A stretch of 64,000 nt of DNA from an uncultured Eubacteriales bacterium (lineage in GTDB: Bacteria; Bacillota; Clostridia; Christensenellales; Aristaeellaceae). Shown here one piece after another: positions 11,812 through 26,415 of the stretch. The DNA lies in NCBI GenBank assembly GCA_900316415.1, contig ONCV01000012.1, forward strand, positions 44,310 to 108,309. Direction: 5' to 3'. A program made the position numbers and the translations under genes. The notes under the pieces were generated by a model, which saw only the letters and a program-made list of their open reading frames with translations, did not search any database and had not been told where the DNA came from. How positions within the stretch are numbered: position 1 is the first letter of the stretch; every line of letters begins with the position of its first letter.

Positions 11812-13501
11812 TTACGATCTGAACAATCCATTCTATACCTCCAGTGACTATTCCGATTGGACCGAACCGGTATTATATGGCGGAGAAATACCGGTTAGAA
11901 CAATAACTCTTTCTCCTGAGAAGCCTATTGTATATATCGGCAATTCATATTATCTTGGGAAAACGATCAAACCTGCCAGCGCTCATTATGAGTCAATTAA
12001 GTGGGTCTCTTCCGTTCCTAATGTGCTGAGAGTAGATAGTTATGGCAAGATAACGGGTGCTTCTGAAGGGAAAGCGGATATAACCGCCTCAATAGGGGAT
12101 GTCAGCGATACGGTCGAAGCAACGGTTTATGATATTGAATCCAATATCACTAATGCAAAGGATGAACAGACGGTAACGGACAAAGCTGGCGATGTTATTG
12201 ATGGCATAGTTAACAGCGAGTCACCCGACTTGTCAAATACAGATATATCAGCTAGTGAAATACAAAGCCTGAAGAATCAGATTCGTGAAGGATTGGACCG
12301 CGGGGATCAGTTCAGGACGGACCTGAAAAATGAACCGCGCACAGAGAGTGATTACAGTCAAATCAAAGCTGTTCAGGAATGGATGTCAGGTTTCAAGTTT
12401 GCAGCTGCCTCAAATATCACGCTGGAGATGTATCATCGGGATCATGGCGGGAACCATCATCATATTGGTAATCTGATACAGCTAGATAACCAGATCAGTG
12501 TTTCCTTGCCTTTCAAAGCCTTACCTGAACCGGAGGCGGGATTCACCCGGGAGTTTTTGCTGTTGAAGATCCATAATGGAATTGTCAGCAGTACAACTGA
12601 GTTTACGTTTATCAATGCAAATCAGTCAGAATACTCAGAATGTGTCATTCAGGAAAGCCAGTTTTCGGATTTTATTCTTGCCTATCGAGATGTAGAGGAA
12701 GCGAAGAAGCCAGAGTCGCATATCACGATCTCTTTTAGCCGGGGCGGAACAGCAGACTATGAAACGGTTAAGGATGATAGAGGGACAAAGGTAATCCTGC
12801 ATGCTTATCCACTCAACGGCTATTCCTTTAACAAATGGGAGATCTTATACGGAAACGTGGAGATCACCGACAACGCTTTTTACCTGGGCGATGTTGATGT
12901 TGAGATAATGGCAATGTTTGAACCAATGGATAGCCTTTGGAATATCACTTTTGAGGTGAACGGTAAAGGTCAACTTGTAATTGAACCGATAAAGGCGACT
13001 CCGGGACAAACAGTAACGGTGTTGGCGCTTCCTGATACGGGATATGAACTGGAAAGTTTGCAGGCTTCTTATTCTGTTGGAGAGATTTCTATCAGCAAGG
13101 ATGAGGATGATAATTATACTTTTGTGATGCCGGATGGAAATGTAAAGGTACTGGCTGTATTTGATCTACTGGAAAAGGGGAATGATAATCCTCCAGAAGA
13201 AAAACCTGTACAGGAACCAAATGAAACGCAGTTCCAGGAACCGACACAGGATGACAATCAGCAGGAAGCGAAACCTGAGGACAAAGAAAAGCAGGAACCT
13301 GCAAAAACGGATAATCAATCTGCAGAATTGGATAATAAAGATAACGACGGATTATCAGCCTCAACTCAGACAGAAAATAAAGAATCAAGCAAGCATGTTC
13401 CAAAGACAGGGGATAATGCTGCACTTGGAATCTGGTCATTGCTTGTTATTGCGGGGCTGTTTGGTATCGTAGTCAGTATCATAAAAGAACGTAGTAGATG
13501 A
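11801..13501 (+). CDS. C-terminal fragment of an LPXTG-type wall-anchored Big_2/InlB-repeat protein
   Basis: 566 residues from the first ATG after the frame break. In order: the end of an FN3-like module; a Big_2 domain (about 28-110, SIKWVSSVPNVLRVDSYGKITGAS style); an unrecognised 170-residue region rich in acidic residues with an HHH run (GGNHHHIGN); two InlB-type repeats (about 300-370, GYSFNKWE, and 385-450, PDTGYELES); a Gln/Glu/Pro-rich spacer; then a sortase signal VPKTGD, a hydrophobic helix and the basic tail KERSR. A sortase would attach it to peptidoglycan. It lacks its own signal peptide, which is on 10821-11615, so it is probably untranslated or non-functional unless the breaks are assembly errors. 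Confidence 0.65.
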   Translation: MAFSYDLNNPFYTSSDYSDWTEPVLYGGEIPVRTITLSPEKPIVYIGNSYYLGKTIKPASAHYESIKWVSSVPNVLRVDSYGKITGASEGKADITASIGDVSDTVEATVYDIESNITNAKDEQTVTDKAGDVIDGIVNSESPDLSNTDISASEIQSLKNQIREGLDRGDQFRTDLKNEPRTESDYSQIKAVQEWMSGFKFAAASNITLEMYHRDHGGNHHHIGNLIQLDNQISVSLPFKALPEPEAGFTREFLLLKIHNGIVSSTTEFTFINANQSEYSECVIQESQFSDFILAYRDVEEAKKPESHITISFSRGGTADYETVKDDRGTKVILHAYPLNGYSFNKWEILYGNVEITDNAFYLGDVDVEIMAMFEPMDSLWNITFEVNGKGQLVIEPIKATPGQTVTVLALPDTGYELESLQASYSVGEISISKDEDDNYTFVMPDGNVKVLAVFDLLEKGNDNPPEEKPVQEPNETQFQEPTQDDNQQEAKPEDKEKQEPAKTDNQSAELDNKDNDGLSASTQTENKESSKHVPKTGDNAALGIWSLLVIAGLFGIVVSIIKERSR

Positions 13502-13576: not shown

Positions 13577-14494
13577 ATGGCTAAGTACTCTGCCATTAAA
13601 CGGCGGACATTTGAGATTATCAGCAAGGCTGAAAGCGGCGATCGCGCCAGTTCCATTTTTGACTGGTCCATCATGGCCTTGATCGCCCTGAGTATTCTTA
13701 CCATTATTCTGGACTCTTTCCAAAACATACATGAGAGATACCAGACTCTTTTTCAGACGTTTGAGGTTATTACCGTCATCGTTTTTACAATAGAGTATAT
13801 TCTTCGTATCTGGACTGCGGATCTGCTGTATCCAGATGCAAAGCATCCAAGGTTGAAATACTGCTTCTCCTTCATGGCAATTGTAGATCTTCTGGCCATA
13901 CTGCCTTTTTATCTTCCATTCTTCTCAGCAGATCTCCGATTCCTTCGAATGATGCGTCTTTTCAGACTTTTTAGGCTGTTGCGCGTTCTTAAACTGGGCA
14001 GGTATTTGGATGCCCTCCAGGTCATTGTAAAGGTTATCCGAACGTCAGGGCCGCAGCTAATCATGTCAGTGGTGATTTGCTTTTTCGTGATGCTCTTTTC
14101 GGCGATCATCATGTATGAAGTTGAGAACCCTGTTCAGCCGGAACAGTTTCCCAATGTGCTGTCTTCTTTGTGGTGGGCTATATGTACCCTCACAACTGTC
14201 GGTTATGGTGATGTTTATCCTATAACGGCTGTCGGCAGATTCTTTGCCTCAATCATTAGTCTGGTGGGCATTGGAATCATTGCCATCCCCACCGGTATTA
14301 TTGCCGCCGGATTCAATCAGGTAATAAACAAAGAACAGGACAAAGATGCAGTAGAAACAATGAATGATGATGAGCTTCTTGCCCTGCAGGGGAAAGTGAT
14401 CAAACAGTTGTCAGAACGAGGATATTCTCTTGTTATTGGTAAACCAACGGAACCAGATGAGAAAGAGGGTAAAGGATCCGATAGTCATACGTAG
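13577..14494 (+). CDS. Voltage-gated-type potassium channel protein
   Basis: A 305-residue six-helix cation channel subunit. The S4-like helix carries regularly spaced arginines (RFLRMMRLFRLFRLLRVLKL, residues 121-140). The pore loop contains the potassium selectivity filter TVGYGD (207-212), followed by S6 with glycines (IGIIAIPTGIIAAGF). A short cytoplasmic C terminus follows. The start ATG has TGAGGA upstream. It lies 76 bp after the surface-protein gene and 35 bp before a secreted-protein gene that opens the Hxs operon, so it may be the first gene of that transcription unit. Its codon use matches the AT-rich island rather than the flanks. Confidence 0.88.
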   Translation: MAKYSAIKRRTFEIISKAESGDRASSIFDWSIMALIALSILTIILDSFQNIHERYQTLFQTFEVITVIVFTIEYILRIWTADLLYPDAKHPRLKYCFSFMAIVDLLAILPFYLPFFSADLRFLRMMRLFRLFRLLRVLKLGRYLDALQVIVKVIRTSGPQLIMSVVICFFVMLFSAIIMYEVENPVQPEQFPNVLSSLWWAICTLTTVGYGDVYPITAVGRFFASIISLVGIGIIAIPTGIIAAGFNQVINKEQDKDAVETMNDDELLALQGKVIKQLSERGYSLVIGKPTEPDEKEGKGSDSHT

Positions 14495-14529
14495 AATTAG
14501 GATGCGCATATTTAAAGGAGATGAGTACT

Positions 14530-15633
14530 TTGGCTACAAAACTTCGTACGAGAACTATTCTATGGGCAATTCTGCTTCTTCTAACCCTAAGTTTATGTTT
14601 AAATCCAGCACAGGCTGAAGAATCGTTCGCTTTAAATCTTACGATAAACTTTCATGGTAATCTCATTTTTTCCAGGTATAATGCTAAAATGAAGTTGGAT
14701 AATGAACTGATAACTATAATCCAACACGGGGGCAAGTACATTGACTCGTTGACAGTAACTGCTGGGAAGCATACTCTGGCATTCTATAAAGAAGACAACG
14801 ATAAGGTAAACGGACAAATAGAGATCGATGTAAAAGGAACGAGCTTTTTTTCCTGTACGATATCTGCAACAAGGTCTGCTATAAATATTTCTGATGTAGA
14901 TTTCAGATCAGCTGAACCAGAGAATGAGAAAGAATTGAAGGAAAGGGCAGTTACTGATGCAGATTACAGTATGGTCGTACCGGAGGAAAAGAAAGGAAAT
15001 GAGGATATAGTTATTACGTATGAAGATGCGCCATACTTAAAAGGGAGAGGCTACATTGATGTGATAGGAGCAGAACCATATTACGTAGGGATTTATGGAT
15101 ATGTTGTGACTGGCCCTTATGATGGAATGAATGAGAATCATGAGTATAATATTACACCATGGCAGGTCAACAAATATGCTAAAATCGACGGAAATTGGGT
15201 AGAAGATGGAAAGATTAATCATAAGACAAAAGTAGCGGTTGTGTCTCAGGAGCTTGAAAAAAAGAACGGAAAAGAGTATCAAGGCTATCTTGAGGTCATT
15301 GAGATTGATTCGGGAAATAGGGAATATATAAAGGTAAGTAATTTTTGCACATCGGAGTACTGGAAGGAAAGTATGAATAAAATCAACGAAAAAGGTTATT
15401 GCATCGCCGCTTATTCTAAGAAAAGCAGTTTCGACCCAATAAATCAGAAGAACAAAGCAGTTAAGATAAAAAACAAAACGCGTGTTCTGATTCCGATGAA
15501 AGGTACATTCTATGTTAGTTCACCTGATGTGATCAACCATTCAGTTCCGGGTATTGTTCCAATAGAAAAAGATGGAAACCAGGTTTACGATTTTGTTTTT
15601 TTCAACAGCGGTGATTTGAATGTAGAGTATTAG
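14530..15633 (+). CDS. Secreted protein of unknown function at the head of the Hxs operon
   Basis: 367 residues. TTG 14530 is taken as start because TTTAAAGGAG ends nine bases before it; the in-frame ATG 14521 directly abuts that site and cannot use it. The signal peptide (MATKLRTRTILWAILLLLTL, cleavage near AQA-EE) is followed by about 90 residues of beta-rich sequence (INFHGNLIFSRYNAKMKLDN) that resembles small carbohydrate- or PEGA-like modules, then a central region (YEDAPYLKGRGYIDVIGAEPYYVGIYGYVV is in this part) and a C-terminal region predicted beta. No catalytic motif recognised. It is 26 bp before hxsD and probably co-transcribed. Confidence 0.65.
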   Translation: MATKLRTRTILWAILLLLTLSLCLNPAQAEESFALNLTINFHGNLIFSRYNAKMKLDNELITIIQHGGKYIDSLTVTAGKHTLAFYKEDNDKVNGQIEIDVKGTSFFSCTISATRSAINISDVDFRSAEPENEKELKERAVTDADYSMVVPEEKKGNEDIVITYEDAPYLKGRGYIDVIGAEPYYVGIYGYVVTGPYDGMNENHEYNITPWQVNKYAKIDGNWVEDGKINHKTKVAVVSQELEKKNGKEYQGYLEVIEIDSGNREYIKVSNFCTSEYWKESMNKINEKGYCIAAYSKKSSFDPINQKNKAVKIKNKTRVLIPMKGTFYVSSPDVINHSVPGIVPIEKDGNQVYDFVFFNSGDLNVEY

Positions 15634-15659
15634 AAATAGAAAGCAGGAGAAAAAAGGAA

Positions 15660-16043
15660 ATGATAAAGAAGTTAATGGTGGATAAAGGCATATATTCAAA
15701 AGATGTTCTCCTGAAGACAGCATTCAGTTTTACGGAAAGAGCGTATATTCATCTGGAGCAGAATAACGAGTATTGGGTTATTCAATGGACGAATAAGGAA
15801 GATGAAGATATTAATCCACTCGAATTTGAGAATGAATTGATTGCGCAGCAGATAAGAGAGAGACTGTTAGTTATCAATTCCGATATACGAAAAATAGTTC
15901 TTGCAAGAGCTTATGCTTCTTCGGTGATTGAATTAGCAGACGAAAAAACAAATGGAAATAAGATAGATGCAATAGACGACGGGAAACAATCATTAGAAAC
16001 CATGGATTCAGAAAAAATACTGAAAGGGTGGTTTGATGAATGA
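15660..16043 (+). CDS. hxsD: His-Xaa-Ser system protein HxsD
   Basis: A 127-residue protein matching what I know of HxsD, the small partner protein of the radical SAM pair in His-Xaa-Ser systems. The family hallmark is an E-F-x-N-E-L-x-x-Q-x-x-R-E-x-L helix, here PLEFENELIAQQIRERL (residues 53-69), after an N-terminal IYSKDVLLKTAFSF strand-helix. HxsD is presumed to help the maturases recognise the substrate, although no biochemistry was known to me. AGGAG and AAGGAA precede the ATG. The 3' end overlaps the next small gene by four bases. The C-terminal 40 residues beyond the motif are not recognised. Confidence 0.78.
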   Translation: MIKKLMVDKGIYSKDVLLKTAFSFTERAYIHLEQNNEYWVIQWTNKEDEDINPLEFENELIAQQIRERLLVINSDIRKIVLARAYASSVIELADEKTNGNKIDAIDDGKQSLETMDSEKILKGWFDE

Positions 16044-16252
16044 ATATATGTTTTGACCTGGATATTTATTCTGAGGAAGCAGTTTCTAAAGCGATTAAGG
16101 ATTATCAGGATATTGCAGTGATCAGCACCAGAAAAGAAGGGGAGCAGATGGAATGCGTTTTTCGCTCTTGTGCGGATCATTTTCCGGAGCAATTGGTTAT
16201 TCACGAGTTCTCAAACTACGTATTGAATTTAACTGTTTCTGGTAAAGAATGA
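16040..16252 (+). CDS. HxsD-like small protein
   Basis: A 70-residue protein overlapping hxsD (ATGA). Its sequence parallels the first half of HxsD: an IYSEEAVSKAIKDY segment (residues 9-22) corresponds to IYSKDVLLKTAFSF, and HEFSNYVL (55-62) corresponds to LEFENELI. I therefore read it as a second, short HxsD-family member, possibly the actual substrate-binding chaperone for one of the two radical SAM enzymes. No signal or membrane segment. Its tight coupling with hxsD and the next gene supports a real gene. Confidence 0.7.
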   Translation: MNICFDLDIYSEEAVSKAIKDYQDIAVISTRKEGEQMECVFRSCADHFPEQLVIHEFSNYVLNLTVSGKE

Positions 16253-16263
16253 GGATTATAACA

Positions 16264-17274
16264 ATGAATTGCTTTGAAGTACTTATGCTAATCCTTATGC
16301 TTGCATTGGGAGCATACTGTTCATATACTGATTTCATTTGCGGGAAGGTAAGCAATAAAGTACTTATTGGTGGCTTTTCTGCGGGACTCATTCTTCACGT
16401 ATGTCTGTTGTTTTCTGGAATGTTGCCTTATTATCGAACATGGATTATCAACATGCTGGTAGCAGATTTTATCTCGATAGGTATGTACTATCTTGATATC
16501 TGGGCAGCAGGAGATTCAAAGCTGTTCATGGCCTTATACTTTTTGGTTCCACCAAGACTATTGGATGCTGGGCCTTTATCATACAGCATCATGCCATTTC
16601 TTTTTATCTTTTCACTTGCATTACTTTGGACGATGTGTGATACTACTTTTCGTCTTCTCAGACGAGAAGCGCATAAGAAACAGACATTTGAGGTAAAAAC
16701 CTTTTTACTCAATTATGCAAGAAACATGATTGAAGTGACCGGATTCTATTCAGTGTGTTATGCTGTGATTCCGGACAAAATGAATACGCAGCCGCTTTTT
16801 GCATCCGTGCTGCTTTTTTTGTATGTATATTTCTGTTCTCATGTACCATTGATGAAGAAATGGTATATTGTGGTAATTCATCTCGGCGTAGCTATCGCGT
16901 TAGGTATAGTACAACATAGACTTCCGGAATTGCCGTCCATATGGAACATAGTAATTATCGCTGCAGTAATCATAATTCAAAAGTATTGTTCAATGTATAA
17001 CTATCAACTGATCAGGACATCAGAAGCAAAAGAAGGCATTATTCCCGCTATGGAAACTGTAATGAGTTTTCAGAAATCAAGAGTTCATTCGTTGCCGGCA
17101 GATCCGTCAGAAAAAATGACGGCGAGGATTACATGTGAGCAGGCGGCAGCCATTAGAAGATGGGAAAAGTCTGCCACAGGAAAACCGGAGATCTGGATTG
17201 TTAGGAAAGTACCATTTGCAGTTATGATATTGATGGGGTTTATATTCTGGATGTCTATTCGAATTGGGGGGTGA
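16264..17274 (+). CDS. Type IV prepilin peptidase-like aspartic protease (A24)
   Basis: A 336-residue membrane protein with roughly eight hydrophobic helices. The two A24 aspartates are in place: Asp23 in GAYCSYTDFICGKVSN and Asp84 in WAAGDSKL, a variant of the G-x-G-D motif with Ala in the first glycine position. Such enzymes cleave leader peptides at the cytoplasmic membrane face. The second half (after about residue 150) is longer than in TadV/CpaA and includes a 70-residue cytoplasmic loop or tail near 255-320. ATG 16264 is preferred over 16249 because GAGGAT lies seven bases upstream. It sits between hxsD-like and hxsC with no space, implying a role in maturing the system's product; no pilin genes are nearby. 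Confidence 0.72.
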   Translation: MNCFEVLMLILMLALGAYCSYTDFICGKVSNKVLIGGFSAGLILHVCLLFSGMLPYYRTWIINMLVADFISIGMYYLDIWAAGDSKLFMALYFLVPPRLLDAGPLSYSIMPFLFIFSLALLWTMCDTTFRLLRREAHKKQTFEVKTFLLNYARNMIEVTGFYSVCYAVIPDKMNTQPLFASVLLFLYVYFCSHVPLMKKWYIVVIHLGVAIALGIVQHRLPELPSIWNIVIIAAVIIIQKYCSMYNYQLIRTSEAKEGIIPAMETVMSFQKSRVHSLPADPSEKMTARITCEQAAAIRRWEKSATGKPEIWIVRKVPFAVMILMGFIFWMSIRIGG

Positions 17275-17280
17275 AGACAT

Positions 17281-18159
17281 ATGCCAGGAGTATTATTCGA
17301 GCCAGATGATGTTTGCCTGTATGTTACAGAAAAGTGCAATTCGAATTGTATCATGTGCCCGATGAGCCTGCACTCGAGACAGCGGGGACTTTCCCTCGGT
17401 GATGATGAATGGAATAACATTCTGGGATTCCTTCCTGAGCATACAAAACATATAACAATTACTGGCGGTGAACCATTTCTGGTGTATGATCGGATCATTC
17501 CAGTGATGAAGGAAATTAGTACAAGATGTCCAGAAGCGGAAATACTTGTGTTGACTAATGGAAGAGCTCTGGCGGTAGATAGAGTTTTTGAACAGCTTAA
17601 ATCAAGCATTACTGAGAAGTTTCGTTTTGCCATCCCACTTCATGCATCGACAGAAGAGCTACATGACAGAATAACACAATCTCCCGGAAGTTTTCAGCAA
17701 ACTATTCTTGGAATAAAACGTTTAAAAGAAACGAAGGCAAAAATCGAGATCAGAATTGTTGGCCATCGTTTGAATCTGCATGATATTAGTGAACTGTTTA
17801 CAATGATTGCGTTGACGGACATAAAGCCGGATATTATCAATTTGATCGCTATGGAGATGACCGGATGCGCAGGCAGAAACAGAGACGAACTATGGGTGGA
17901 TTATAACTTGTTAGCTGAGAATGCCCGGAGAGGTATTCAATATGCGATAGAAAAGGGTATAGACGTTGGACTATACAACTTTCCATTATGTATGCTCCCG
18001 GAAGGAATGTGGCCGCTTGCCAAGTCGAGCATAACAACTTCCAAAATACGCTATTATCAAGCCTGCGAAGATTGTAATGTCCGAGATGTATGCGGTGGAT
18101 TGTTTTACTCGACTTATGAATTGGGCCTTTGTAAAGTGAATCCGTTCAGGAGGCAATAA
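17281..18159 (+). CDS. hxsC: His-Xaa-Ser system radical SAM maturase HxsC
   Basis: One of two radical SAM enzymes thought to modify the His/Ser-repeat protein. The 292-residue chain opens with the 4Fe-4S cysteines Cys19, Cys23 and Cys26 (TEKCNSNCIMCP), then the SAM-binding ITITGGEPFLV and a TIM-barrel core. A C-terminal cysteine set (Cys262, Cys265, Cys271, Cys284) suggests an auxiliary cluster of SPASM/twitch type. It begins seven bases after the A24 peptidase stop with GGGGGGTG as ribosome site and ends three bases before hxsB, so the pair is tightly coupled. Assignment to HxsC rather than another peptide maturase rests mainly on pairing and context. Confidence 0.8.
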   Translation: MPGVLFEPDDVCLYVTEKCNSNCIMCPMSLHSRQRGLSLGDDEWNNILGFLPEHTKHITITGGEPFLVYDRIIPVMKEISTRCPEAEILVLTNGRALAVDRVFEQLKSSITEKFRFAIPLHASTEELHDRITQSPGSFQQTILGIKRLKETKAKIEIRIVGHRLNLHDISELFTMIALTDIKPDIINLIAMEMTGCAGRNRDELWVDYNLLAENARRGIQYAIEKGIDVGLYNFPLCMLPEGMWPLAKSSITTSKIRYYQACEDCNVRDVCGGLFYSTYELGLCKVNPFRRQ

Positions 18160-18162
18160 ATC

Positions 18163-19548
18163 ATGTTGGGATTCTTTTATTATTCGAAGTTTCAGGATAA
18201 GTATTTGCTTACCAACGACGCAGGGAGATTTGCTTTTCTCAGTGAAGTAGAGTTTGGCCGGTTGATCAACTTGTCTCTTTCAGAAGATACACCGATCTAT
18301 CAGGAACTCGAAGAAAAGGGCTTTGTGTATTCATGCTCAAAGGAAGAATATATCAGAGATCATATTCATTTGATCAGAGACAACAACAGGTATCTGTTCA
18401 GCGGAACAAATCTTTTTATTATTGCGGTTACAAATGCATGCAATAATCGTTGCGTATATTGCCAAGCGAACGGACTGGCAAATGCAAGGAATATGGACAA
18501 AGAAGTTGCTGAACAGGCACTACAAAGAATCAGCGAATGTTCAGCAGAAGAAATCACTATCGAATTCCAGGGCGGCGAGCCGCTGCTTAATTTTCCTATC
18601 ATCCGGTATTTCGTTGAGAGAGCCAGAATAATAATGCCCCATAAAACCGTTCAATTTGCAATTGTTTCCAATTTAGGCTTGTTAAATGATGAAATTATAG
18701 ACTTCCTGAAGGAAAATAGGATCAGTATTTCCACATCGCTCGATGGTCCGGTGGAGCTTCATGATTCTAACCGGCCAGACAGTCAGGGAAATGGAACTTA
18801 TGACAATACGGTCAATGGAAGAAAACGCCTTGCGTATAAGGGAATAGTTTGCGGTGCTATTCAAACAACCACCAGAAAATCGCTTACCCGTGCTAAAGAA
18901 ATCGTGAGAGAATATGTTGAAAGAGGATATGAGTATATATTTCTTAGACCATTATCCAGATTAGGTGCGGCAGCAAGGAACTGGGATTTGATTGGATACA
19001 GTGCAGAAGAATATCTGGTTTTTTATCGACGGGCTTTGCAAGAGATCATAGAGGTAAATAGAGAAGGGAAAAAGCTTAAGGAATACTATGCTTCTATTTT
19101 TCTTTCCAAAATGTTTAATTCCCGTGGAGTAAACTATATGGAACTGCGATCTCCGTGTGGAGCGGGACTTGGGCAAGTAGCCATTACTGCAAATGGAAAT
19201 GTATATACCTGTGATGAAGGCAGAATGATGGCGGAAGCAGGAGATGAGTCTTTTTTGATCGGAAATGTTTTCAAAGACAGCTATAGTCAATGGATTCAGT
19301 CTTCCGGGTGTCAGGCGGTATGTTCTGCTTCTCTATTGGATACACTTCCCGGCTGTTGCGATTGTGTATTTAAACCATATTGTGGAGTCTGTCCGGTGGT
19401 CAATTATGCTCTGCATGGGAATATTTCGCATGTCAACCCGGAAAAATGTAAAATCAATAAAGGAATAATGTCCATATTGCTTGAATATATTACAGAAGGC
19501 GATCCTTTTATACTAGATTTATTCATGAGATGGGGTGAAGAGGCATGA
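18163..19548 (+). CDS. hxsB: His-Xaa-Ser system radical SAM maturase HxsB
   Basis: The second radical SAM enzyme, 461 residues. Residues 1-85 form an N-terminal domain of the peptide-recognition type (YLLTNDAGRFAFLSEVEFGRL), as found ahead of the core in peptide-modifying maturases. The cluster cysteines are Cys93, Cys97 and Cys100 (TNACNNRCVYC), followed by IEFQGGEPLL and SNLGLL. The C terminus is a SPASM domain: SPCGAGLGQVAITANGNVY, CDEGRM, CCDCVFKPYCGVCP, and a last cysteine in PEKCKIN. Start ATG 18163 uses the GGAGG inside the end of hxsC. The stop overlaps the next gene by four bases. Confidence 0.85.
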   Translation: MLGFFYYSKFQDKYLLTNDAGRFAFLSEVEFGRLINLSLSEDTPIYQELEEKGFVYSCSKEEYIRDHIHLIRDNNRYLFSGTNLFIIAVTNACNNRCVYCQANGLANARNMDKEVAEQALQRISECSAEEITIEFQGGEPLLNFPIIRYFVERARIIMPHKTVQFAIVSNLGLLNDEIIDFLKENRISISTSLDGPVELHDSNRPDSQGNGTYDNTVNGRKRLAYKGIVCGAIQTTTRKSLTRAKEIVREYVERGYEYIFLRPLSRLGAAARNWDLIGYSAEEYLVFYRRALQEIIEVNREGKKLKEYYASIFLSKMFNSRGVNYMELRSPCGAGLGQVAITANGNVYTCDEGRMMAEAGDESFLIGNVFKDSYSQWIQSSGCQAVCSASLLDTLPGCCDCVFKPYCGVCPVVNYALHGNISHVNPEKCKINKGIMSILLEYITEGDPFILDLFMRWGEEA

Positions 19549-20621
19549 GACCATTTGCTGATCAGAAAAGATTACTCGCAAGCGCTTTGGCGATGATGAT
19601 TGTTGTTTGCTGCCTTTCTTTCACAAGTGTTCCATTAGTTGCTAACGCCGAAAACACGAATCCTATTACAGAGGGAGCTTTGAAATATAGTGACGAATCT
19701 CACTACGAAGGCAGTCTGGAATGGGGTAAGATACGCACAGGCAATGGTACATTTACCTGGAGCACAGGTGAAGTCTATGAAGGAATGTGGGAAAAGGATA
19801 TTCAGAATGGACAAGGGAAAATGACTTGGCCGGGACTGGGCGAATATGAGGGTCATTTTGTTGATGGGAAAAGAGAAGGACAGGGAACTTTTACTTGGAT
19901 CTATGAAGGAACACCAGAAACCGGGAAACCTGTTTCTTATCAGGGACAATGGACAAACGATCAGATCGGACCCGTTGGAACTATGACTTTTGCAGGATTA
20001 GGTATTTATGAAGGAGACTTTTCGAAGAATGCCAGAAGCGGTGTCGGCCGTTTTATCTGGGACAACGGAGACGAGTATTACGGTTCATGGTCGGACGATA
20101 AAATAAATGGTACAGGAGTGTTTACTGCTTCGGATGGAACGGTGCTGGAAGGAACTTTTGTGAATAATGTACTGAACAAGGGCGTTGCCAGCTATTTGGT
20201 TAATGGAGGAAAAGCTGTTCGAGATGTGCAGGGCGGTAAGTCACTTGCAACTGTCTCAATTGTATATGACGATGGTACAACTGTTTCGGGGAAGCTAAAA
20301 GGGGATGTATTTACCGGAAATGTTAATATCACCTATGCATCTGGGGATACATATGTAGGAACTATCAGCAACGGAGTGAAAAATGGGAAAGGAACATATA
20401 CCTGGAAGAACGGAGCGCATTATGTTGGAGAATGGGTTAACGATAAGATGTCCGGGAAGGGAAAGTATTGCTATACATCCAATGATAATGTAGAATACCT
20501 GTCTGGAACCTTCCTTAATGGTAGTCCATCCGGGAAGTTGATTTATATGTCCGAGAAGAAACTGCGTTATGAGACTACATGGTCCAATGGGAAATGTGTC
20601 GACATCAAGTATAAAAAATAA
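19545..20621 (+). CDS. Secreted MORN-repeat protein
   Basis: A 358-residue protein with a signal peptide (hydrophobic ALAMMIVVCCLSFTSVPLVA, cleavage near ANA-EN) followed by about ten MORN repeats of some 20-23 residues, for example YEGMWEKDIQNGQGKMTWP, YEGHFVDGKREGQGTFTW and YVGEWVNDKMSGKGKYCY. MORN repeats form an elongated beta structure; outside cells they are presumed to bind surface polymers or proteins. It overlaps hxsB by four bases and precedes hxsA by 11 bp, so it belongs to the Hxs operon. It may scaffold or display the repeat protein, which is inference. Confidence 0.85.
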   Translation: MRPFADQKRLLASALAMMIVVCCLSFTSVPLVANAENTNPITEGALKYSDESHYEGSLEWGKIRTGNGTFTWSTGEVYEGMWEKDIQNGQGKMTWPGLGEYEGHFVDGKREGQGTFTWIYEGTPETGKPVSYQGQWTNDQIGPVGTMTFAGLGIYEGDFSKNARSGVGRFIWDNGDEYYGSWSDDKINGTGVFTASDGTVLEGTFVNNVLNKGVASYLVNGGKAVRDVQGGKSLATVSIVYDDGTTVSGKLKGDVFTGNVNITYASGDTYVGTISNGVKNGKGTYTWKNGAHYVGEWVNDKMSGKGKYCYTSNDNVEYLSGTFLNGSPSGKLIYMSEKKLRYETTWSNGKCVDIKYKK

Positions 20622-20632
20622 CGGAGGACGGA

Positions 20633-21403
20633 ATGGCAGGTTTGAAATTTCCAGAGATACATAAAAAGATCAATGATTTCCTCCTGGAAGAGGAGGGAAC
20701 AATTACACGCGGTAAGGTTGTTTCTGTAGGAACAATGCTTTTGTTGCTGAGCGTTCTATTTATGGACGATGCTTTTGCGGGACACCGGTCGCATTCTTCC
20801 CATCGTTCCCATAGCAGTCACCGATCTCACAGCAGCGGCAGTCATAGTAACCATGGAAGTCATAGCAATCATGGCAGCCACAGTAATCATGCAAGTCATA
20901 GCAATCATGGCAGCCACAGCAATCACAGCAATGCTACCCCGGTTCCGGTTCCCAATAATCTGAGTTTTTCGTCTTCTCCTAGCGATAATTCAATTGTTTA
21001 TCAGTCCTTTACAAACACGGGAAGTTCTCATGGGTTCTCCTTAGAACCAGCGGTTACGACGGATCCTAACATTATACTGACAAGATATAATCCTGCTGAA
21101 TCTGAGGTCCCGGTTACTCCTGCTCCCGTGGGTTCTGCTGAGCTTACGGCTAATGCAATATCTTCAGGTGGCAAAATGCCTGAACTTCCTGTGAGCAGTG
21201 TTTCCAAGGGTGTGGGCACAGTACCAGAAAGTACTGGTGTTTTATTGCCGGATACATCTGCGCTGAGTATACAGGATTCTGCATCCAATCAGTTCAATCC
21301 ATTTATCGAGGATGTTACACTTCCTAAAATGAATGATTTACTGAAAACTACGAAACTGGATCTGGGTATTATTCCAAAGACAAATGGAAAAATCGTAGAA
21401 TAG
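20633..21403 (+). CDS. hxsA: His-Xaa-Ser repeat protein HxsA, presumed radical SAM substrate
   Basis: A 256-residue protein. Residues 1-28 are a charged leader ending in LEEEGTITRGK; residues 29-44 are a hydrophobic helix; AFA (47-49) is a likely signal-peptidase site. The His/Ser repeats start immediately after, at His51, and run to about residue 100: three HRSHSS units, then about five SHSN(H)(G/A)-type units, all with 18-nt period. The remainder (101-256) is Ser/Thr/Pro-rich and unrecognised. This is the expected target of HxsB and HxsC, which are predicted to crosslink or otherwise modify the repeat. The chemistry is unknown to me. GGAGG precedes ATG by five bases. Confidence 0.82.
   Translation: MAGLKFPEIHKKINDFLLEEEGTITRGKVVSVGTMLLLLSVLFMDDAFAGHRSHSSHRSHSSHRSHSSGSHSNHGSHSNHGSHSNHASHSNHGSHSNHSNATPVPVPNNLSFSSSPSDNSIVYQSFTNTGSSHGFSLEPAVTTDPNIILTRYNPAESEVPVTPAPVGSAELTANAISSGGKMPELPVSSVSKGVGTVPESTGVLLPDTSALSIQDSASNQFNPFIEDVTLPKMNDLLKTTKLDLGIIPKTNGKIVE
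20783..20933 (+). repeat. 18-nt tandem repeats encoding His/Ser hexapeptides
   Basis: Three units encode HRSHSS with divergent codons, then several near-identical units encode SHSNHG or SHSNHA. The later units differ mostly by synonymous changes such as AGTCAT versus AGCCAC, showing selection for the peptide pattern plus recent unit duplication. Confidence 0.85.
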
Positions 21404-21411
21404 AGGTCGCC

Positions 21412-22302
21412 ATGAAAAGAATTAAGAGTATAATGTGTTTTCGTTTTGCAGCATTTATGCTATCAGTGCTTCTTTTCTCCTTAACATCAATGAATGCATT
21501 GGGAGAGAACTTTTCTGATAATGCTGATGCAATTGAAGCTGCAGCCGATTCCGTGTTCATGCTGGAGGTTTATTCCTCTAAAAATGAAAAACTCGCTGTC
21601 GGAAGCGGATTTATTGCTTTTAATTCTTCTTTGCTTGTAACCAACTACCACGTAATTGAGGGTGGGGCATATATTATTGCGATCAGTGATGACAAAGAAC
21701 AATACTTAATTAGTGAAAAGTGTTCTGTTGATCCTCAGAAAGATATTGCAATCTTAAAATTCGATAAGGATACTGGCCTTTCTCCATTGCCTCTTGATGA
21801 CCAGAATGATTTGAAGCGAGCTCAAAAGGTTGTTGCGATTGGAAGTCCAGCTGGATTGCGTAATACGGTTTCAATCGGTAATATTAGTGCGTTTTATAAC
21901 AGGGATGGGAGAGACTGGATTCAGTTTACAGCCCCTATTTCTTCAGGGAGCAGCGGAGGAGTTCTGCTAAACAACGAAGGAAAGGTTATTGGTGTTACGA
22001 CTGCAACATACGCGGCAACTCAGAATGTCAACATGGCAGTTCGTATTCATGATGTAATCCGACTTTATGAACAATGGGATCATAAAACTACCAGCAGGTT
22101 AAATAATGCTAGGGGCTATAATAATTATCCGTCTATGACATCTCAAATAGAAGATAATACCAATGTCACAGTTTGGGTTACAGCAGGCGGTAAAAAATAC
22201 CATAGCAATCCAAACTGTTCAAAAATGAAATCGCCATTGCAGATGGATCTTTTGGATGCTATAGAAAAAGGATATGATGCTTGTGGAAAATGTTTCAAGT
22301 AG
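21412..22302 (+). CDS. Secreted trypsin-like serine protease with C-terminal Cys/His module
   Basis: A 296-residue chymotrypsin-fold protease of the DegP/S1C type without a PDZ domain. A signal peptide (residues 1-30, ending near NALG) is followed by the catalytic triad His80 (VTNYHVIEG), Asp111 (DPQKDIAILKF) and Ser181 (SSGSSGGVLLN). Residues about 250-296 are a separate small module, YHSNPNCSKMKSP...GYDACGKC, with a Tyr-His pair and three cysteines, a module I recognise from other Firmicute extracellular proteins and that probably binds metal or forms disulphides. It starts eight bases after hxsA, so it is a good candidate to trim the exported repeat protein. Confidence 0.88.
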   Translation: MKRIKSIMCFRFAAFMLSVLLFSLTSMNALGENFSDNADAIEAAADSVFMLEVYSSKNEKLAVGSGFIAFNSSLLVTNYHVIEGGAYIIAISDDKEQYLISEKCSVDPQKDIAILKFDKDTGLSPLPLDDQNDLKRAQKVVAIGSPAGLRNTVSIGNISAFYNRDGRDWIQFTAPISSGSSGGVLLNNEGKVIGVTTATYAATQNVNMAVRIHDVIRLYEQWDHKTTSRLNNARGYNNYPSMTSQIEDNTNVTVWVTAGGKKYHSNPNCSKMKSPLQMDLLDAIEKGYDACGKCFK

Positions 22303-22305
22303 ATG

Positions 22306-22379
22306 GTTCATGTTTCAGAGGGCTTGCTCACAGAGGACAATCCTCCTGAACACGATACCACAGTTCTCTAAACATGAAC
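22306..22379 (+). promoter_or_regulatory. Inverted repeat between the protease and GT-C genes
   Basis: GTTCATGTTTCAGAG (22306-22320) pairs with CTCTAAACATGAAC (22366-22379) over 14 bp with one bulge, closing a 45-nt loop. The right arm contains the first ATG of the following gene, so the structure could be a terminator-like or translation-masking element. There is no U-tract. Confidence 0.5.
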
Positions 22380-23999
22380 GGCGATAAGAAAGAACGACTG
22401 AATGTCGGGGGTATGAGAAGTATGCATCGTTTTTTTAAAACAATCTGCATAGTATACCTGGCATTCGTTGTGGCTATTACGTTTAGTCCGACATATATCC
22501 TCTTCTTGGCGTGCTTCGTGATATTATTGATGTTGGCATTGTTGATCGAACGAAGAAATAAGGAAAACAGTCTATCAACAGCAATCCGAAATGATAGTAT
22601 TGCTGATGGGAACAATTACAAAAGCAAAACCAAGGAAAAACTCTTTCCTGTTGCATATGGGTTGACTGTATTTTGCTTGTCATCTGTATACTGGCTTGCC
22701 TTTTATCCTGGCGGATTTAATCTGGATGCTTATGGCCAATGGCTACAAGCTCACCATTTGATGCCATACCAGGATTGGCATCCGTTTATTTCAACAATTC
22801 TTCTTGAACTAGTAGTTAAGTTGAAAGATTCTTTTGAATTCTATATTGTGCTTCAAATCCTGGCTTTTTCTATAGCAACGGCGTATATGCTTTTTTGCTT
22901 TCAAAAGGCCGGAATAAACCAGCATCTTTTATTGATTGTTGCGTTGTTCATCGGAATAAATCCAGCGGTAGGACTGAATACTGTATGTCTTACGAAGGAT
23001 GCTCAGTTTACGATAGTTTGTATATTGTTGACCGGGATTACAATAAGGATTATTACAACTAATGGCAGTTGGTTTGTCTCCACAATTCACCTTGTTACCT
23101 TATCTATCCTTTGTTCGTTAGCGGTTCTTGTTCGGCACAATGGATTCCTTTTTGTGGTTCCATTGATCTTGCTCTTTATCATGTCTTATCCTGCTCTTTA
23201 TAAGAAGATTCTAGGCTCTATTCTTTGCATGTTGATTCTCGTGCTTGCTGTGAAAGGTCCAATACAATTAATGATGAATGTGGAAAAACATGAAAATGTA
23301 CTAGGAGAAATTACAGGGATTCCGATGGGAATGATGGCAAATGCATTGGTTGAGGATGCGGATCATCTTCCTGAGGAGACTCACTTGTTTCTGAATGAGA
23401 TAGCAGATGACACAATGTGGAGAAAGGAATACATACTTGGAGAATGGGATTCATGCAGATGGTTTTTCGGGGGCGAAGATCTTCTAAAGGAATACAACCT
23501 GGTTGACATTATAAGATATACTACAGAAACCATCATAAACTGTCCGCAGGCTTGCTATAGTTCTTTCAGGGAGAATACAAGGATGGTATGGTCGATCTAT
23601 AATGCAAAGGAATACTGGATTCCCAATGTATATGTTGAGAACAATGACTTTGGAATCAAATCTTCTCCCAACGAATTCTTTAAATCAATCGTAGAAGGAC
23701 AGATAGAACTAACTATGAAGCCTGTAGTTTCATCTTTCTTCTGGAATATTGGACTTCTTCTTGTGCTTGCGATATTATCCTGGCTTGGAGTCAAAAAGCC
23801 GGCAAAGATGAATCTGCTGTTATTATTCTTCCCGTACTTCACCTATATGATCGGCACAATGTTTTTACTTTCAGGCCCCAACCAAAGGTATTTTTATAGC
23901 GGAGAAGTTATTCTGCCTGTAGGGATCCTTTTCATGTGTAGCATATTTGATTATCCGATATTGATGAAGAGAGAACTCTGCCAAAAGGATCAGATTTGA
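22374..23999 (+). CDS. Multipass membrane protein, probable GT-C glycosyltransferase (DUF6020-like)
   Basis: A 541-residue protein with about twelve hydrophobic helices. Between the first helices lies YPGGFNLDAYGQWLQ followed by DWHPFISTILLELV, the acidic/His loop typical of GT-C enzymes that use polyprenyl-phosphate sugars and of the DUF6020 family. A large extracytoplasmic part spans about residues 300-440, and the last helices include SGPNQRYFYSGEVILPVG. It probably transfers a sugar outside the membrane, perhaps to a surface polymer or an exported protein. The first ATG (22374) lies inside a stem; ATG 22413, with GGGGG upstream, may be the true start. It sits 71 bp after the protease gene in the same direction. 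Confidence 0.65.
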   Translation: MNGDKKERLNVGGMRSMHRFFKTICIVYLAFVVAITFSPTYILFLACFVILLMLALLIERRNKENSLSTAIRNDSIADGNNYKSKTKEKLFPVAYGLTVFCLSSVYWLAFYPGGFNLDAYGQWLQAHHLMPYQDWHPFISTILLELVVKLKDSFEFYIVLQILAFSIATAYMLFCFQKAGINQHLLLIVALFIGINPAVGLNTVCLTKDAQFTIVCILLTGITIRIITTNGSWFVSTIHLVTLSILCSLAVLVRHNGFLFVVPLILLFIMSYPALYKKILGSILCMLILVLAVKGPIQLMMNVEKHENVLGEITGIPMGMMANALVEDADHLPEETHLFLNEIADDTMWRKEYILGEWDSCRWFFGGEDLLKEYNLVDIIRYTTETIINCPQACYSSFRENTRMVWSIYNAKEYWIPNVYVENNDFGIKSSPNEFFKSIVEGQIELTMKPVVSSFFWNIGLLLVLAILSWLGVKKPAKMNLLLLFFPYFTYMIGTMFLLSGPNQRYFYSGEVILPVGILFMCSIFDYPILMKRELCQKDQI

Positions 24000-24282
24000 T
24001 TATTACACAATCTCACGCAGAAAGCATTTATGTGATGATGTGGTTTCTGATCTCGTGATCAATACTCTCTTTTGTCATCAACGGCATAGACTGTACAACA
24101 TTATCCGAACGAAATCATTATGGGCTGCGTGCTTGTTCTTGCTTGTTCTTGCCAATAGTTTTCATTGCTATCTTATTCTGTTTGTGCTATTCTATAAACG
24201 AATTGTAAGAGTGATTAGTTTCACTCGGACATAGCTTGGATGGAATTCAGGTACCATATTTATCGAAAGACAGGTGTTTGAA

Positions 24283-26415
24283 ATGATTACAAAAAACAGG
24301 ACAACATTATTGGTTTTCGTAATGCTACTGATCGGATTATGTGCATGTGCCAGCGCAACATCTACCGATTTAGATCGATCTATTAGTTTTGCTGAGAATG
24401 ATTATGTTCTTTATGTTGGGAAGACGCTGAAGATAGAAGCCATAATAGAGAATCTATTGGATACGGCTCCGAAAAAAACTCAACTGGTTTGGTCGTCATC
24501 AAATCAAGATGTTGCGAGTGTGAATGCTTCTGGAGTGATTACTGGTAAAAACGCAGGGAAAGTGGACATTGAAGTTTCAGCGAAGGACAATGAGGCCATT
24601 AAAGCCTCTGTCGAAGTTGAAGTTCGCGTGCCAGTACGGACGGTTCAGATAAATGAGAATAATGTAGCGGTTGTAATTGGTGGTCCCGAAGAAGCTTCAA
24701 AAGCCCGCCTTACATATACTCTTCAACCTGAAAATGCATTTCATCAATCTGGAACATGGACTTCGTCTGATGAGAATGTGGCGGTTGTTGACAGTGAAGG
24801 CGTAGTAACTGGAATTAGCGCGGGATCGGCGAAAATTACGTTTACAAGCGATGATCCTAGCAGCCAGAAGAAAGCTCAGACCACAGTAAAAGTTGGACAG
24901 GCTGTAACTGAGATAATCTTACCGGAAAAAGAAGTTGTAAATGTCAAAAAGTCGATTACTCTCAAACCTGAGATTAAACCTGCAAATTCAACAAATAAGA
25001 AGCTGGAATATGTATCATCTGATCCATCTATTGCGACAGTATCGTCTTCAGGCCAGATCACAGGAGTTGCAAATGGTGAAGCAGTCATTACTTGTACTAC
25101 TACTGATGGGAGCAATGTGTCGGCATCTGTATCGGTAAGTGTGTTTCAGCCTGTCCAGAGCATGAAATTGGATAAAAACAAGCTGAACGCATTTGCTGGA
25201 AAAACTTCAGAGCCTCTGGTTGTGACTATTGCTCCTGCAGATGCAAAGTATCAGACTTTTACATGGTCATCTTCAGACGAGTCTGTTGCGAAGGTTGATG
25301 AAAACGGGGCTGTTACGGGAATTGCAGGAGGGAAGGCACAAATAACAGCCACTTCAACAGAGCCTGTGAGTGGAAATGCAAAACCAAAGTCGGTAACGTG
25401 TCAGGTTACTGTTTCTCAAGCTGTTGAGTATATCGGGCTGGAGAAGAATGAAGCTAAATCATCAAATAAGAACTTGGTATTAAACGTGACGGTCTTGCCG
25501 GAAACAGCTACGAATAAGAAAGTAAAATGGACTTCGTCTGACAGTAAGGTTGCCACTGTTAATGGTGGAAGGGTAAAAATCAAAAGGCATGAAGGAGAGA
25601 CGATTATTACTGCAACAGCTGAAGATGGAAGTGGAATCTATGGCAGTTGCAGGGTCACAGTAGGGTTCTCAGGAACTGTAATACAAATTGGAAGCTATGT
25701 GCGAAGGTATGGATCATACGTGTGGGATGTGGATTCGTTCAATGGCAATGGTTCACTAGATGGCTTAAAAGAGAGCATTAATACATCCGATGATATAGAT
25801 AGGGAAGATTTATCTGAAGCAGAAAAAGGAGAAATGTCCGAGGCACAGTTGCTCCTGACAACAACGAGAGAAGAAATCCTGTTCAGGGATATTCCGTGGG
25901 GGTCCAATCTTTATGCTGTTAGACCCAAAATTAGTTTTGATAGTTTTTGGAAACCAGAGGTCGTGGATGGTGGCTCATACAAAAAACTGATAAAGCATTC
26001 TTTCGATGATAAGATCAGAGTTGCGGGACATACTGTTAATTCTTTGGAATGCTTATTTACATATGATGTGGATGAAGAAGGTAAAGTAGGCAAAACCAGT
26101 TTATTCTATTATGCAGAATATGGTTTGAACGATGACAACCAGAAAACCAGGAGCGAGGACATTGAGACTAAGCTTATTGAGAAATACGGTGAACCGGATA
26201 AAACTGAAGATGTTAATTCAAACAAAACAATGTTGTGGTATGGGCAGAATTATACAAAACTGAAATATGTATTGCATGGTGGAAAAATAACGATTTCTTA
26301 TGAGTGGGTTGAAGGGGCAAAAAAAAGAACGGAAGCTGATGAAGCATATGCGAAAAATCAGTCAGAAGTAGTTGAGGAAAAACCTTCTTATTCCGATAGC
26401 AAAGAGGGATTGTGA
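24283..26415 (+). CDS. Secreted protein with five Big_2 domains
   Basis: A 710-residue exported protein. ATG 24283 is chosen over a TTG at 24274 because AGGTG lies about ten bases upstream. The signal peptide is MITKNRTTLLVFVMLLIGLC with cleavage near ASA-TS. Five immunoglobulin-like Big_2 domains follow, each with a W(S/T)SS(N/D)...VA.V...G.ITG pattern: about residues 30-115, 120-205, 210-290, 295-385 and 388-465. The last 240 residues are a different, partly acidic domain starting with a DIPWGSNLYAV motif and later FTYDVDEEGKVGKTSLFYY, of unknown function. No wall-anchoring motif. It is the last gene of the AT-rich island; upstream 24000-24282 holds no clear gene. Confidence 0.85.
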   Translation: MITKNRTTLLVFVMLLIGLCACASATSTDLDRSISFAENDYVLYVGKTLKIEAIIENLLDTAPKKTQLVWSSSNQDVASVNASGVITGKNAGKVDIEVSAKDNEAIKASVEVEVRVPVRTVQINENNVAVVIGGPEEASKARLTYTLQPENAFHQSGTWTSSDENVAVVDSEGVVTGISAGSAKITFTSDDPSSQKKAQTTVKVGQAVTEIILPEKEVVNVKKSITLKPEIKPANSTNKKLEYVSSDPSIATVSSSGQITGVANGEAVITCTTTDGSNVSASVSVSVFQPVQSMKLDKNKLNAFAGKTSEPLVVTIAPADAKYQTFTWSSSDESVAKVDENGAVTGIAGGKAQITATSTEPVSGNAKPKSVTCQVTVSQAVEYIGLEKNEAKSSNKNLVLNVTVLPETATNKKVKWTSSDSKVATVNGGRVKIKRHEGETIITATAEDGSGIYGSCRVTVGFSGTVIQIGSYVRRYGSYVWDVDSFNGNGSLDGLKESINTSDDIDREDLSEAEKGEMSEAQLLLTTTREEILFRDIPWGSNLYAVRPKISFDSFWKPEVVDGGSYKKLIKHSFDDKIRVAGHTVNSLECLFTYDVDEEGKVGKTSLFYYAEYGLNDDNQKTRSEDIETKLIEKYGEPDKTEDVNSNKTMLWYGQNYTKLKYVLHGGKITISYEWVEGAKKRTEADEAYAKNQSEVVEEKPSYSDSKEGL

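What the first reader, a model, noticed from the sequence alone, without database searches (positions are those of the whole stretch)
14530..22302. Hxs peptide-modification operon enlarged with processing and display genes
Seen: nine tightly packed co-directional genes, several with 4-bp overlaps, encode two radical SAM proteins (CxxxCxxC at 93-100 of HxsB and 19-26 of HxsC), an HxsD homologue and a His/Ser-repeat protein. Known: HxsA-B-C-D systems were defined by comparative genomics (Haft and Basu) and their chemistry was unresolved to my knowledge. Inference: this version adds an A24 prepilin-peptidase-like protease, a secreted MORN protein, a trypsin-like protease and an unknown secreted protein, suggesting a full route: modify in the cytoplasm, cleave at the membrane, export, trim, display.
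Basis: partly seen in the sequence, partly recalled or inferred. Interest (0 to 1): 0.88.

Follow-up and report, generated by a model that had tools for sequence, protein, structure and literature searches.

The report
Prepilin-type protease in a peptide-modification operon
A bacterium carries a nine-gene operon for a histidine/serine-repeat peptide and its two radical SAM enzymes, together with a membrane protease of the kind that trims pilin proteins; this protease is predicted to cut off the peptide's front end so that the peptide, likely modified by then, can leave the cell, a protease type that our literature searches did not find linked to such peptides.

Summary
In detail: nine co-directional genes at 14521-22302, with HxsD, HxsC, HxsB and HxsA3 over curated cut-offs; the small gene 16040-16252 is a second HxsD-type protein. 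The A24 (prepilin-peptidase-type) protease is a core partner: it is within 4.1 kb of the precursor in all 49 sampled HxsA3 loci and in the window; in the window's genus it occurs in exactly the 5 of 45 genomes with HxsB; its aspartate motifs are invariant in 54 of 54 aligned sequences. It tracks one precursor feature, an N-terminal extension ending in acidic-Gly just ahead of a Sec-type signal: 50 of 50 HxsA3; 18 of 19 genomes with HxsA4-like precursors; absent from 5 of 5 HxsA2-type cassettes fetched; and one Tat-like precursor lacks the glycine, its genome this A24. I propose that A24 removes the extension and so licenses export of modified repeats. MORN is in 43 of 50; the trypsin-like protease is nearly genus-specific; gene 1 is a variable neighbour. 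Cleavage, order of steps and radical SAM chemistry are untested.

The parts
14521..15633 (+). gene 1: secreted protein of unknown family, variable neighbour
   Evidence: no NCBIfam or Pfam match; homologue in 2 of the 4 other same-genus loci, in L105 on the opposite strand; none in the 80 loci
15660..16043 (+). gene 2: HxsD (beta-alpha-beta-beta-alpha-alpha fold predicted) with acidic linker and Trp tail
   Evidence: TIGR03976 68 bits over cut-off 50; model pLDDT 84.5; tail compared
16040..16252 (+). gene 3: HxsD-like protein, second HxsD-type partner
   Evidence: NF038315 65.8 bits over cut-off 41
16249..17274 (+). gene 4: A24 (prepilin-peptidase-type) membrane aspartyl protease; D28, G88, D89 and K91 invariant
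   Evidence: PF01478 below cut-off here, at or over it in 4 of 4 same-genus homologues; alignment of 54; only solved relative by sequence at E <= 1 is FlaK 3s0x, E 0.0011
17281..18159 (+). gene 5: HxsC radical SAM enzyme
   Evidence: TIGR03977 271.5 over 267.9; CxxxCxxC at 19-26
18163..19548 (+). gene 6: HxsB radical SAM/SPASM enzyme
   Evidence: TIGR03978 480.2 over 370; closest solved sequence relative 5wgg, then anaerobic sulfatase maturases
19545..20621 (+). gene 7: secreted MORN-repeat protein
   Evidence: PF02493, six repeats passing; only place in the genome with MORN matches
20633..20698 (+). HxsA3 N-terminal extension (residues 1-22) ending EEEG, the predicted A24 cut
   Evidence: Gly in 50 of 50 HxsA3-type sequences, 26-30 residues before the first HxSH
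20699..20779 (+). HxsA3 Sec-type signal (residues 23-49): R/K n-region, hydrophobic core, AFA|G
   Evidence: small/aliphatic-x-Ala/Gly just before the repeats in 50 of 50; basic residue within 8 after the Gly in 50 of 50
20780..20932 (+). HxsA3 His-Xaa-Ser repeats (10 HxS)
   Evidence: NF038309 113.8 over 65; count
20633..21403 (+). gene 8: HxsA3 precursor, whole
21412..22302 (+). gene 9: secreted trypsin-like (S1) protease, His/Asp/Ser triad present (by eye), C-terminal Cys/His motif
   Evidence: Trypsin_2 89.7 bits; triad aligned in the 5 same-genus copies

Best explanation
The operon encodes a His-Xaa-Ser-repeat precursor (HxsA3) with its two radical SAM enzymes and an A24 (prepilin-peptidase-type) membrane protease, which likely cuts the precursor's N-terminal extension off after a conserved glycine once the repeats have been modified, and so would license their export. 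Shown by sequence: the precursor is built as extension - EEEG - Sec-type signal with R/K, hydrophobic core and an AxA-like site - His-Xaa-Ser repeats; the protease keeps both aspartate motifs; protease and extension occur together. Inferred: the extension acts as the leader that HxsB/HxsC (perhaps through the two HxsD-type proteins) use; while attached it keeps the precursor in the cytoplasm; A24 cuts after the glycine at the cytoplasmic face; what remains begins as an ordinary Sec signal peptide, signal peptidase I cuts before the first His, and the modified repeats leave the cell, where the MORN protein likely holds them at the surface.
For: Association with HxsB: A24 (PF01478) in 5 of 45 genomes of the genus, exactly the 5 with HxsB, one match each (Fisher 8e-7 without tree correction). 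Independent of PilC: PF00482 in 37 of 45 genomes of that genus, with or without A24. Near the precursor: A24 within 0.4-4.1 kb of HxsA3 in 49 of 49 sampled HxsA3 loci, same strand in 48, and in the window. Tracks the extension: Hxs-type A24 in 18 of 19 genomes with an acidic-Gly/Ala (HxsA4-like) precursor against 4 of 12 other genomes of that set (Fisher 5e-4); L078, whose precursor has R for the glycine and a Tat-like RRDF signal, has none; five HxsA2-type plasmid cassettes have neither extension nor A24 (5 fetched of 338 matching records). D28, G88-D89-x-K91 invariant in 54 of 54; only solved sequence relative FlaK. Glycine 50 of 50, AxA-like site 50 of 50. A24-HxsB distances correlate (r 0.82, n 50) as HxsC-HxsB do (r 0.84, n 51).
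Against: No cleavage has been shown. The acidic-Gly motif is also kept in HxsA4-like loci whose A24 is not in the locus (A24 within the locus in 7 of 19), so it could serve maturase recognition instead; and 29 of 31 genomes of that set have an A24 over Pfam's cut-off, mostly at other places than the Hxs-type one. Prepilins usually carry Glu at +5 (recalled); these do not. The window's own A24 scores below Pfam's cut-off, and the structure match to FlaK is weak (Foldseek E 1.2, prob 0.89; no match reached E 0.001). L079's genome (a MAG) has the motif but no A24 match. One A24-bearing Hxs locus, L067, also holds a pilin-like gene (PF07963 22.5 against 21.2). The profile used contains sequences from six of the 31 genomes, four of them among the 18.
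Confidence: 0.6

Rival explanations
1. HxsA3 behaves as a pilin-like protein: A24 cuts the extension but the hydrophobic segment stays in the membrane or packs into a fibre, so the modified repeats are displayed on a pseudopilus.
For: Charged extension, Gly and hydrophobic stretch resemble a class III signal (recalled); A24 family; PilC- and PilT-type genes exist in the own genome; L067, an Hxs locus with A24, also holds a pilin-like gene.
Against: An AxA-like signal peptidase I site follows the hydrophobic stretch in 50 of 50. Searched with the own genome's PilC and PilT and a prepilin pattern, none of the 49 HxsA3 loci had a match; of all 82 loci only L067 (pilin-like) and L070 (pilin-like, PilC, PilT; no Hxs-type A24 in its genome) did. 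PilC is in 37 of 45 genomes of the genus regardless of Hxs.
Confidence: 0.12
2. The acidic-Gly motif is only a docking motif for HxsB/HxsC/HxsD, and A24 cuts some other protein or acts as a general protease; signal peptidase I alone matures HxsA3.
For: The motif persists in HxsA4-like loci without a nearby A24.
Against: 18 of 19 of those genomes do hold Hxs-type A24; genes 1, 7 and 9 have ordinary-looking N-terminal signals, so no better substrate is seen in the operon (by eye); five HxsA2-type cassettes do without A24.
Confidence: 0.2
3. One reading: a linear five-step route, modify, cleave, export, trim with the S1 protease, display with MORN, peculiar to this enlarged operon.
For: All these genes are present and genes 7 and 9 begin with signal-like stretches (by eye).
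Against: The S1 protease is strong only in the window's genus; A24 and MORN are not peculiar to this operon.
Confidence: 0.08

Closest known systems
His-Xaa-Ser systems HxsA-B-C-D (Haft and Basu 2011, recalled; NCBIfam TIGR03976-TIGR03979, HxsA2/A3/A4 models)
   Same: HxsB, HxsC and HxsD over their curated cut-offs; precursor over the HxsA3 cut-off
   Different: TIGR03979 HxsA is not met; the A24 copies of the window, L006 and L073 match no NCBIfam model, and the MORN proteins of the window and L030 none over cut-off; two HxsD-type proteins; extension ahead of the signal
HxsA2-type plasmid cassettes (Mesorhizobium, Acidiphilium, Nostoc, Methylobacter, Paraburkholderia)
   Same: HxsB, HxsC and an HxsD match (weakest 1.6e-5); C-terminal HxS repeats
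   Different: Signal peptide at the very N-terminus, no acidic-Gly extension, no A24 and no MORN in the stretch; HxsD without the Trp tail
A24 GxGD proteases: prepilin peptidase, archaeal FlaK (PDB 3s0x)
   Same: Two aspartate motifs invariant in 54 of 54; cut expected on the cytoplasmic side before a hydrophobic stretch (family knowledge)
   Different: Longer C-terminal half; sits in a radical SAM operon; in the genus present in 5 of 45 genomes and not tied to PilC
Membrane proteases in RiPP maturation: EpeP (M50), AgrB (C75), MroQ (M79), as passages of PMC10885120 name them
   Same: Integral membrane protease in a peptide maturation pathway
   Different: None is of the A24 family; the review's text as held has no 'A24', 'prepilin' or 'signal peptidase' (the contents of its Table 1 may not be held)
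Sec-signal RiPPs modified by MNIO enzymes, such as bufferins (PMC12452194, passages)
   Same: Modified precursors with a Sec signal; how premature export is avoided is raised there, with masking by a partner protein as the authors' guess
   Different: The leader here stands in front of the signal and has its own protease; other modifying enzymes

Membership tests
His-Xaa-Ser (Hxs) system | HxsB, HxsC and HxsD over curated cut-offs | tested here: met
   480.2/370, 271.5/267.9, 68/50
His-Xaa-Ser (Hxs) system | adjacent His-Xaa-Ser repeat protein | tested here: met
   HxsA3 NF038309 113.8/65
Original HxsA branch (TIGR03979) | repeat protein over the TIGR03979 cut-off | tested here: not met
   24.3 against 121.65
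A24 prepilin-type peptidase | family profile over cut-off | tested here: inconclusive
   window 20.6 against 26.5; 4 of 4 other same-genus homologues at or over it, one only with its neighbours in the frame
A24 prepilin-type peptidase | two catalytic aspartates with GD.K motif | tested here: met
   D28, G88, D89, K91 invariant in 54 of 54
A24 prepilin-type peptidase | cleaves its substrate after Gly at the membrane | not testable with these tools
   needs expression and mass spectrometry
RiPP pathway | precursor is enzymatically modified | not testable with these tools
   no chemistry found for Hxs in the library listings
Thioether RiPP (sactipeptide, ranthipeptide) | Cys in the modified region | tested here: not met
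   no Cys from the first repeat to the C-terminus in 46 of 50; in the 4 others there are 1-2, by eye in the extra C-terminal region
Type IV pilin | class III signal with retained N-terminal helix | tested here: inconclusive
   Gly before the hydrophobic stretch in 50 of 50, but an AxA-like site after it in 50 of 50

The most novel reading that the evidence does not exclude
A24 proteases are a new class of RiPP leader peptidase and act as an export licence: the leader is placed in front of a complete Sec signal, holds the precursor inside until radical SAM modification is done, and its removal by A24 exposes the signal. This would be a general answer to how Sec-exported modified peptides avoid leaving too early, and the product would be a radical-SAM-modified histidine/serine polymer at the cell surface.
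Probability: 0.42. Interest if true: 0.86.

Novelty: new variant of a known kind. Interest (0 to 1): 0.7.

Why it matters
HxsB-like proteins are common (6560 at E <= 1e-60 among 7999 scored, a capped search), yet no chemistry was found for His-Xaa-Ser systems in the library searched. [quoted passage not shown] Here evolution offers another: an extension ahead of the signal together with a dedicated protease, both missing from the HxsA2-type cassettes fetched, and the glycine and protease both missing from the Tat-like case. That makes the question testable with one precursor, one protease and two point mutants.

Tried and rejected
HxsD as a winged-helix RRE: the model (pLDDT 84.5) is beta-alpha-beta-beta-alpha-alpha and no PDB match reached E 0.001, so the RRE reading was dropped, without a positive fold assignment. 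An A24-HxsC fusion in L033 was rejected: the ORF crosses an assembly gap (720 X of 1273). Anti-phage defence: PADLOC gave only radical SAM matches to viperin models and matches of the protease to protease-bearing models. A pilus role for A24: see rivals; one search was run as a check of that claim and found the L067 and L070 exceptions. A complementarity of MORN with HxsA3 C-terminal extras (7 MORN-less precursors: 4 share an extra C-terminal region, 2 end in a hydrophobic stretch plus Lys, 1 differs; by eye) is post hoc, and MORN-bearing precursors of the genus have long tails too, so it is only a lead; the Fisher value for it counts all 43 MORN-bearing precursors as lacking such a tail and should not be used. 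Pfam scans of MORN-less precursors of L010, L014, L034, L036 and L039 found nothing over cut-off. The split of the 82 loci into 51 and 31 was made, hence the counts by precursor type. The 80 loci are the best of at least 585 relatives of this HxsB, so sampling leans to its kin. The 54 A24 sequences aligned are 53 of the 54 of suitable length listed (L027 left out) plus the window's.
Full report
WHAT IS THERE. The region 14521-22302 holds nine co-directional genes, three junctions overlapping by 4 bp and the rest 3-26 bp apart. Curated NCBIfam models assign gene 2 to HxsD, gene 3 to the HxsD-like family NF038315, gene 5 to HxsC, gene 6 to HxsB and gene 8 to HxsA3, all over their cut-offs; HxsC only narrowly (271.5 against 267.9). 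Gene 8 is not HxsA in the TIGR03979 sense. Gene 4 is an A24-type protease below Pfam's cut-off in the window, but the homologues in the other four same-genus genomes are at or over it, one of them only with its neighbours in the frame. Gene 7 is a MORN protein, gene 9 a trypsin-like protease with its triad, gene 1 is unassigned.

WHERE ELSE. A profile of 59 HxsB sequences (chosen from the 120 listed) found at least 585 relatives in genome contigs; the best 80 were kept. ORFs of these 82 loci were searched with profiles built from the operon's genes (recount): A24 in 60 of 82, MORN in 42, a His-Xaa-Ser precursor in 69, HxsD in 79, HxsD-like in 65. By precursor type, judged from the precursor itself: the HxsA3 type (glycine 26-30 residues before the first HxSH; 49 loci plus the window) has A24 in 50 of 50, in the 49 loci within 0.4-4.1 kb of the precursor and on its strand in 48 (L035 is the exception), and MORN in 43 of 50; in L005 and L025 A24 is cut by the contig end and in L033 by an assembly gap. 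The second type (glycine or alanine 36-51 residues before; 19 loci) has A24 within the locus in 7 of 19 and never MORN; of three of these scanned, L055 and L066 pass HxsA4 and not HxsA3 and L084 passes neither; L078, which lacks the motif, passes HxsA4. No precursor was found in 13 loci (in L013 the contig ends at HxsB); A24 is within the locus in 4 of these (L013, L038, L067, L073). The trypsin-like protease is strong only in the five loci of the window's genus (L005, L006, L104, L105 and the window); weak matches in L034 and L043.

A24 IS TIED TO HXS. In the window's genus PF01478 matches 5 of 45 genomes, the same five that have HxsB, one match each; in the own genome the single match is the operon gene. 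PilC-type PF00482 is in 37 of 45, and in 13 of 13 of the best genomes, so those systems do not depend on this A24. MORN (PF02493) is in 7 of 45, including the five. Among 47 further genomes with loci of this kind, 46 have an A24 match and 15 have exactly one; for three of these 15 (L007, L018, L019) I checked by coordinates that it is the operon copy. Pairwise distances of A24 and HxsB correlate (r 0.82, n 50) as those of HxsC and HxsB do (r 0.84, n 51) and more than those of HxsD and HxsB (r 0.68, n 50), permutation p 0.001 each, without correction for the species tree. With the own genome's PilC and PilT and a prepilin pattern as queries, no HxsA3 locus had a match; of the 82 loci L067 has one pilin-like gene (PF07963 22.5 against 21.2) in the same stretch as its A24-bearing Hxs genes, and L070 a pilus locus, in a genome without Hxs-type A24.

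A24 TRACKS THE N-TERMINAL EXTENSION. The 31 genomes of the remaining loci were searched with PF01478 (30 of 31 have a match, 29 over the cut-off) and with the profile of the Hxs-type A24 (22 of 31); none of the places that PF01478 matches at E < 1e-8 is among the latter. Six of the 31 contributed sequences to that profile. Of the 19 genomes whose locus holds a precursor with the acidic-Gly (18) or acidic-Ala (1) motif, 18 have the Hxs-type A24 (four of these 18 contributed to the profile); of the other 12, 4 do (two contributed). L079's genome, a MAG, has the motif and no A24 match. L078 resembles the others in its leader but has R in place of the glycine and a Tat-like RRDF signal (by eye), and its genome has no Hxs-type A24. 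Five plasmid cassettes, fetched from 338 records with an HxsB match, have HxsB, HxsC and an HxsD match with C-terminal HxS repeat proteins (annotated HxsA2 in three of five) that begin directly with a signal peptide (in L113 only if an upstream start is used); none has an A24 or MORN match within about 6 kb. Their HxsD proteins end soon after the second long helix, while the 49 HxsD found in the 51 clostridial-type loci go on into an acidic linker with a Trp (by eye; my narrow pattern matched 27 of 49).

ANATOMY OF THE PRECURSOR. All 50 HxsA3-type sequences read: extension, [DE][EQ][EDG]G, a residue, [IMV], a basic residue within eight of the glycine, a hydrophobic core, a small or aliphatic residue - any - [AG], one residue, then the repeats. 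In the window the parts are residues 1-22, 23-49 and 50-100. From the first repeat on, the residue two after His is Ser in 589 of 752, Asn in 115, Thr in 20; 46 of 50 have no Cys there, so thioether chemistry is unlikely.

STRUCTURES. The A24 model is confident (pLDDT 94.2). No Foldseek match reached E 0.001; the best by probability in the rows listed is FlaK chain B (prob 0.89, E 1.2, TM 0.53 on the target; the first row by E-value is an unrelated transporter at prob 0.07). FlaK is also the only solved sequence relative (E 0.0011). D28, N36, G88, D89 and K91 are invariant in 54 of 54. HxsD has no confident match. HxsB's nearest solved relatives are 5wgg (the SCIFF maturase CteB, name recalled) and anaerobic sulfatase maturases.

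HOW IT LIKELY WORKS. Shown: gene content, motifs and associations above. Inferred: HxsB and HxsC modify the repeats in the cytoplasm, guided by the extension and the HxsD-type proteins; A24 cuts after the glycine; the rest is a normal Sec signal that signal peptidase I removes; MORN retains the product. HxsA2 precursors, without an extension, would need another way to time export.

LITERATURE. The 2022 paper PMC9062424 (passages) says that the motif identified by Haft and Basu putatively relies on HxsB and HxsC for maturation; Haft and Basu's paper is not held and is cited from memory. The review of RiPP leader proteases PMC10885120 (abstract, section 8 and passages) has no 'A24', 'prepilin' or 'signal peptidase' in the text held; its Table 1 may be missing from that text. 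PMC12452194 (passages) calls Sec signals rare in RiPPs, states that a mechanism against premature export must exist and guesses at masking by a partner protein. Searches for prepilin peptidase with radical SAM or RiPP terms showed no paper on such a link in the titles and abstract starts listed (one search listed 20 of 158), nor did searches for HxsA2, HxsA3 or HxsA4. Papers in subscription journals are mostly not in this library.

VERDICT. A real, conserved system. Its new element is the A24 protease as predicted leader peptidase, paired with a precursor whose leader stands in front of its export signal.

Noticed in passing
L078:5314-5706: HxsA-type precursor (passes HxsA4) in which the acidic-Gly motif has R for Gly and the signal looks Tat-like (TRRDF, by eye); its genome has no Hxs-type A24.
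   Followed up: partly
L010, L014, L017, L034, L036, L037, L039: HxsA3 loci without a MORN gene: four precursors share an extra C-terminal region, two end in a hydrophobic stretch plus Lys; MORN might be replaced by a built-in anchor.
   Followed up: partly
window 13577-14494; L104, L105, L034: An ion-channel gene (PF00520 141 bits) lies next to the operon here and within the fetched stretch in three other Hxs loci.
   Followed up: partly
window 22374-23999; L010, L020, L072: A DUF6020 membrane protein follows the operon and also occurs near Hxs genes in three other loci, directly after HxsA3 in L010.
   Followed up: no
G000:C25:23290-27116 (L106): A PilC/PilT-type locus in a genus where PilC is in 37 of 45 genomes but A24 in only 5; how its pilin-like proteins mature is unclear.
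   Followed up: partly
L067:8099-8635: A pilin-like gene with an N-terminal methylation motif in the same stretch as A24-bearing Hxs genes.
   Followed up: partly
L006 / L108: The same operon in a permuted order: MORN, HxsA3 and the S1 protease come before HxsD.
   Followed up: no
window 15660-16043 and 49 clostridial-type HxsD: HxsD carries an acidic linker and a Trp tail that HxsD of the five HxsA2-type cassettes lacks; possibly a docking tail.
   Followed up: partly
plasmids collection: HxsB-like matches (E <= 1e-40) on 338 plasmid records, 314 of them Klebsiella, all under 60% identity; only 21 cover 80% of the query.
   Followed up: no
window 11801-13501 and 24274-26415: Genes with bacterial Ig-like Big_2 domains flank the operon on both sides.
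   Followed up: no
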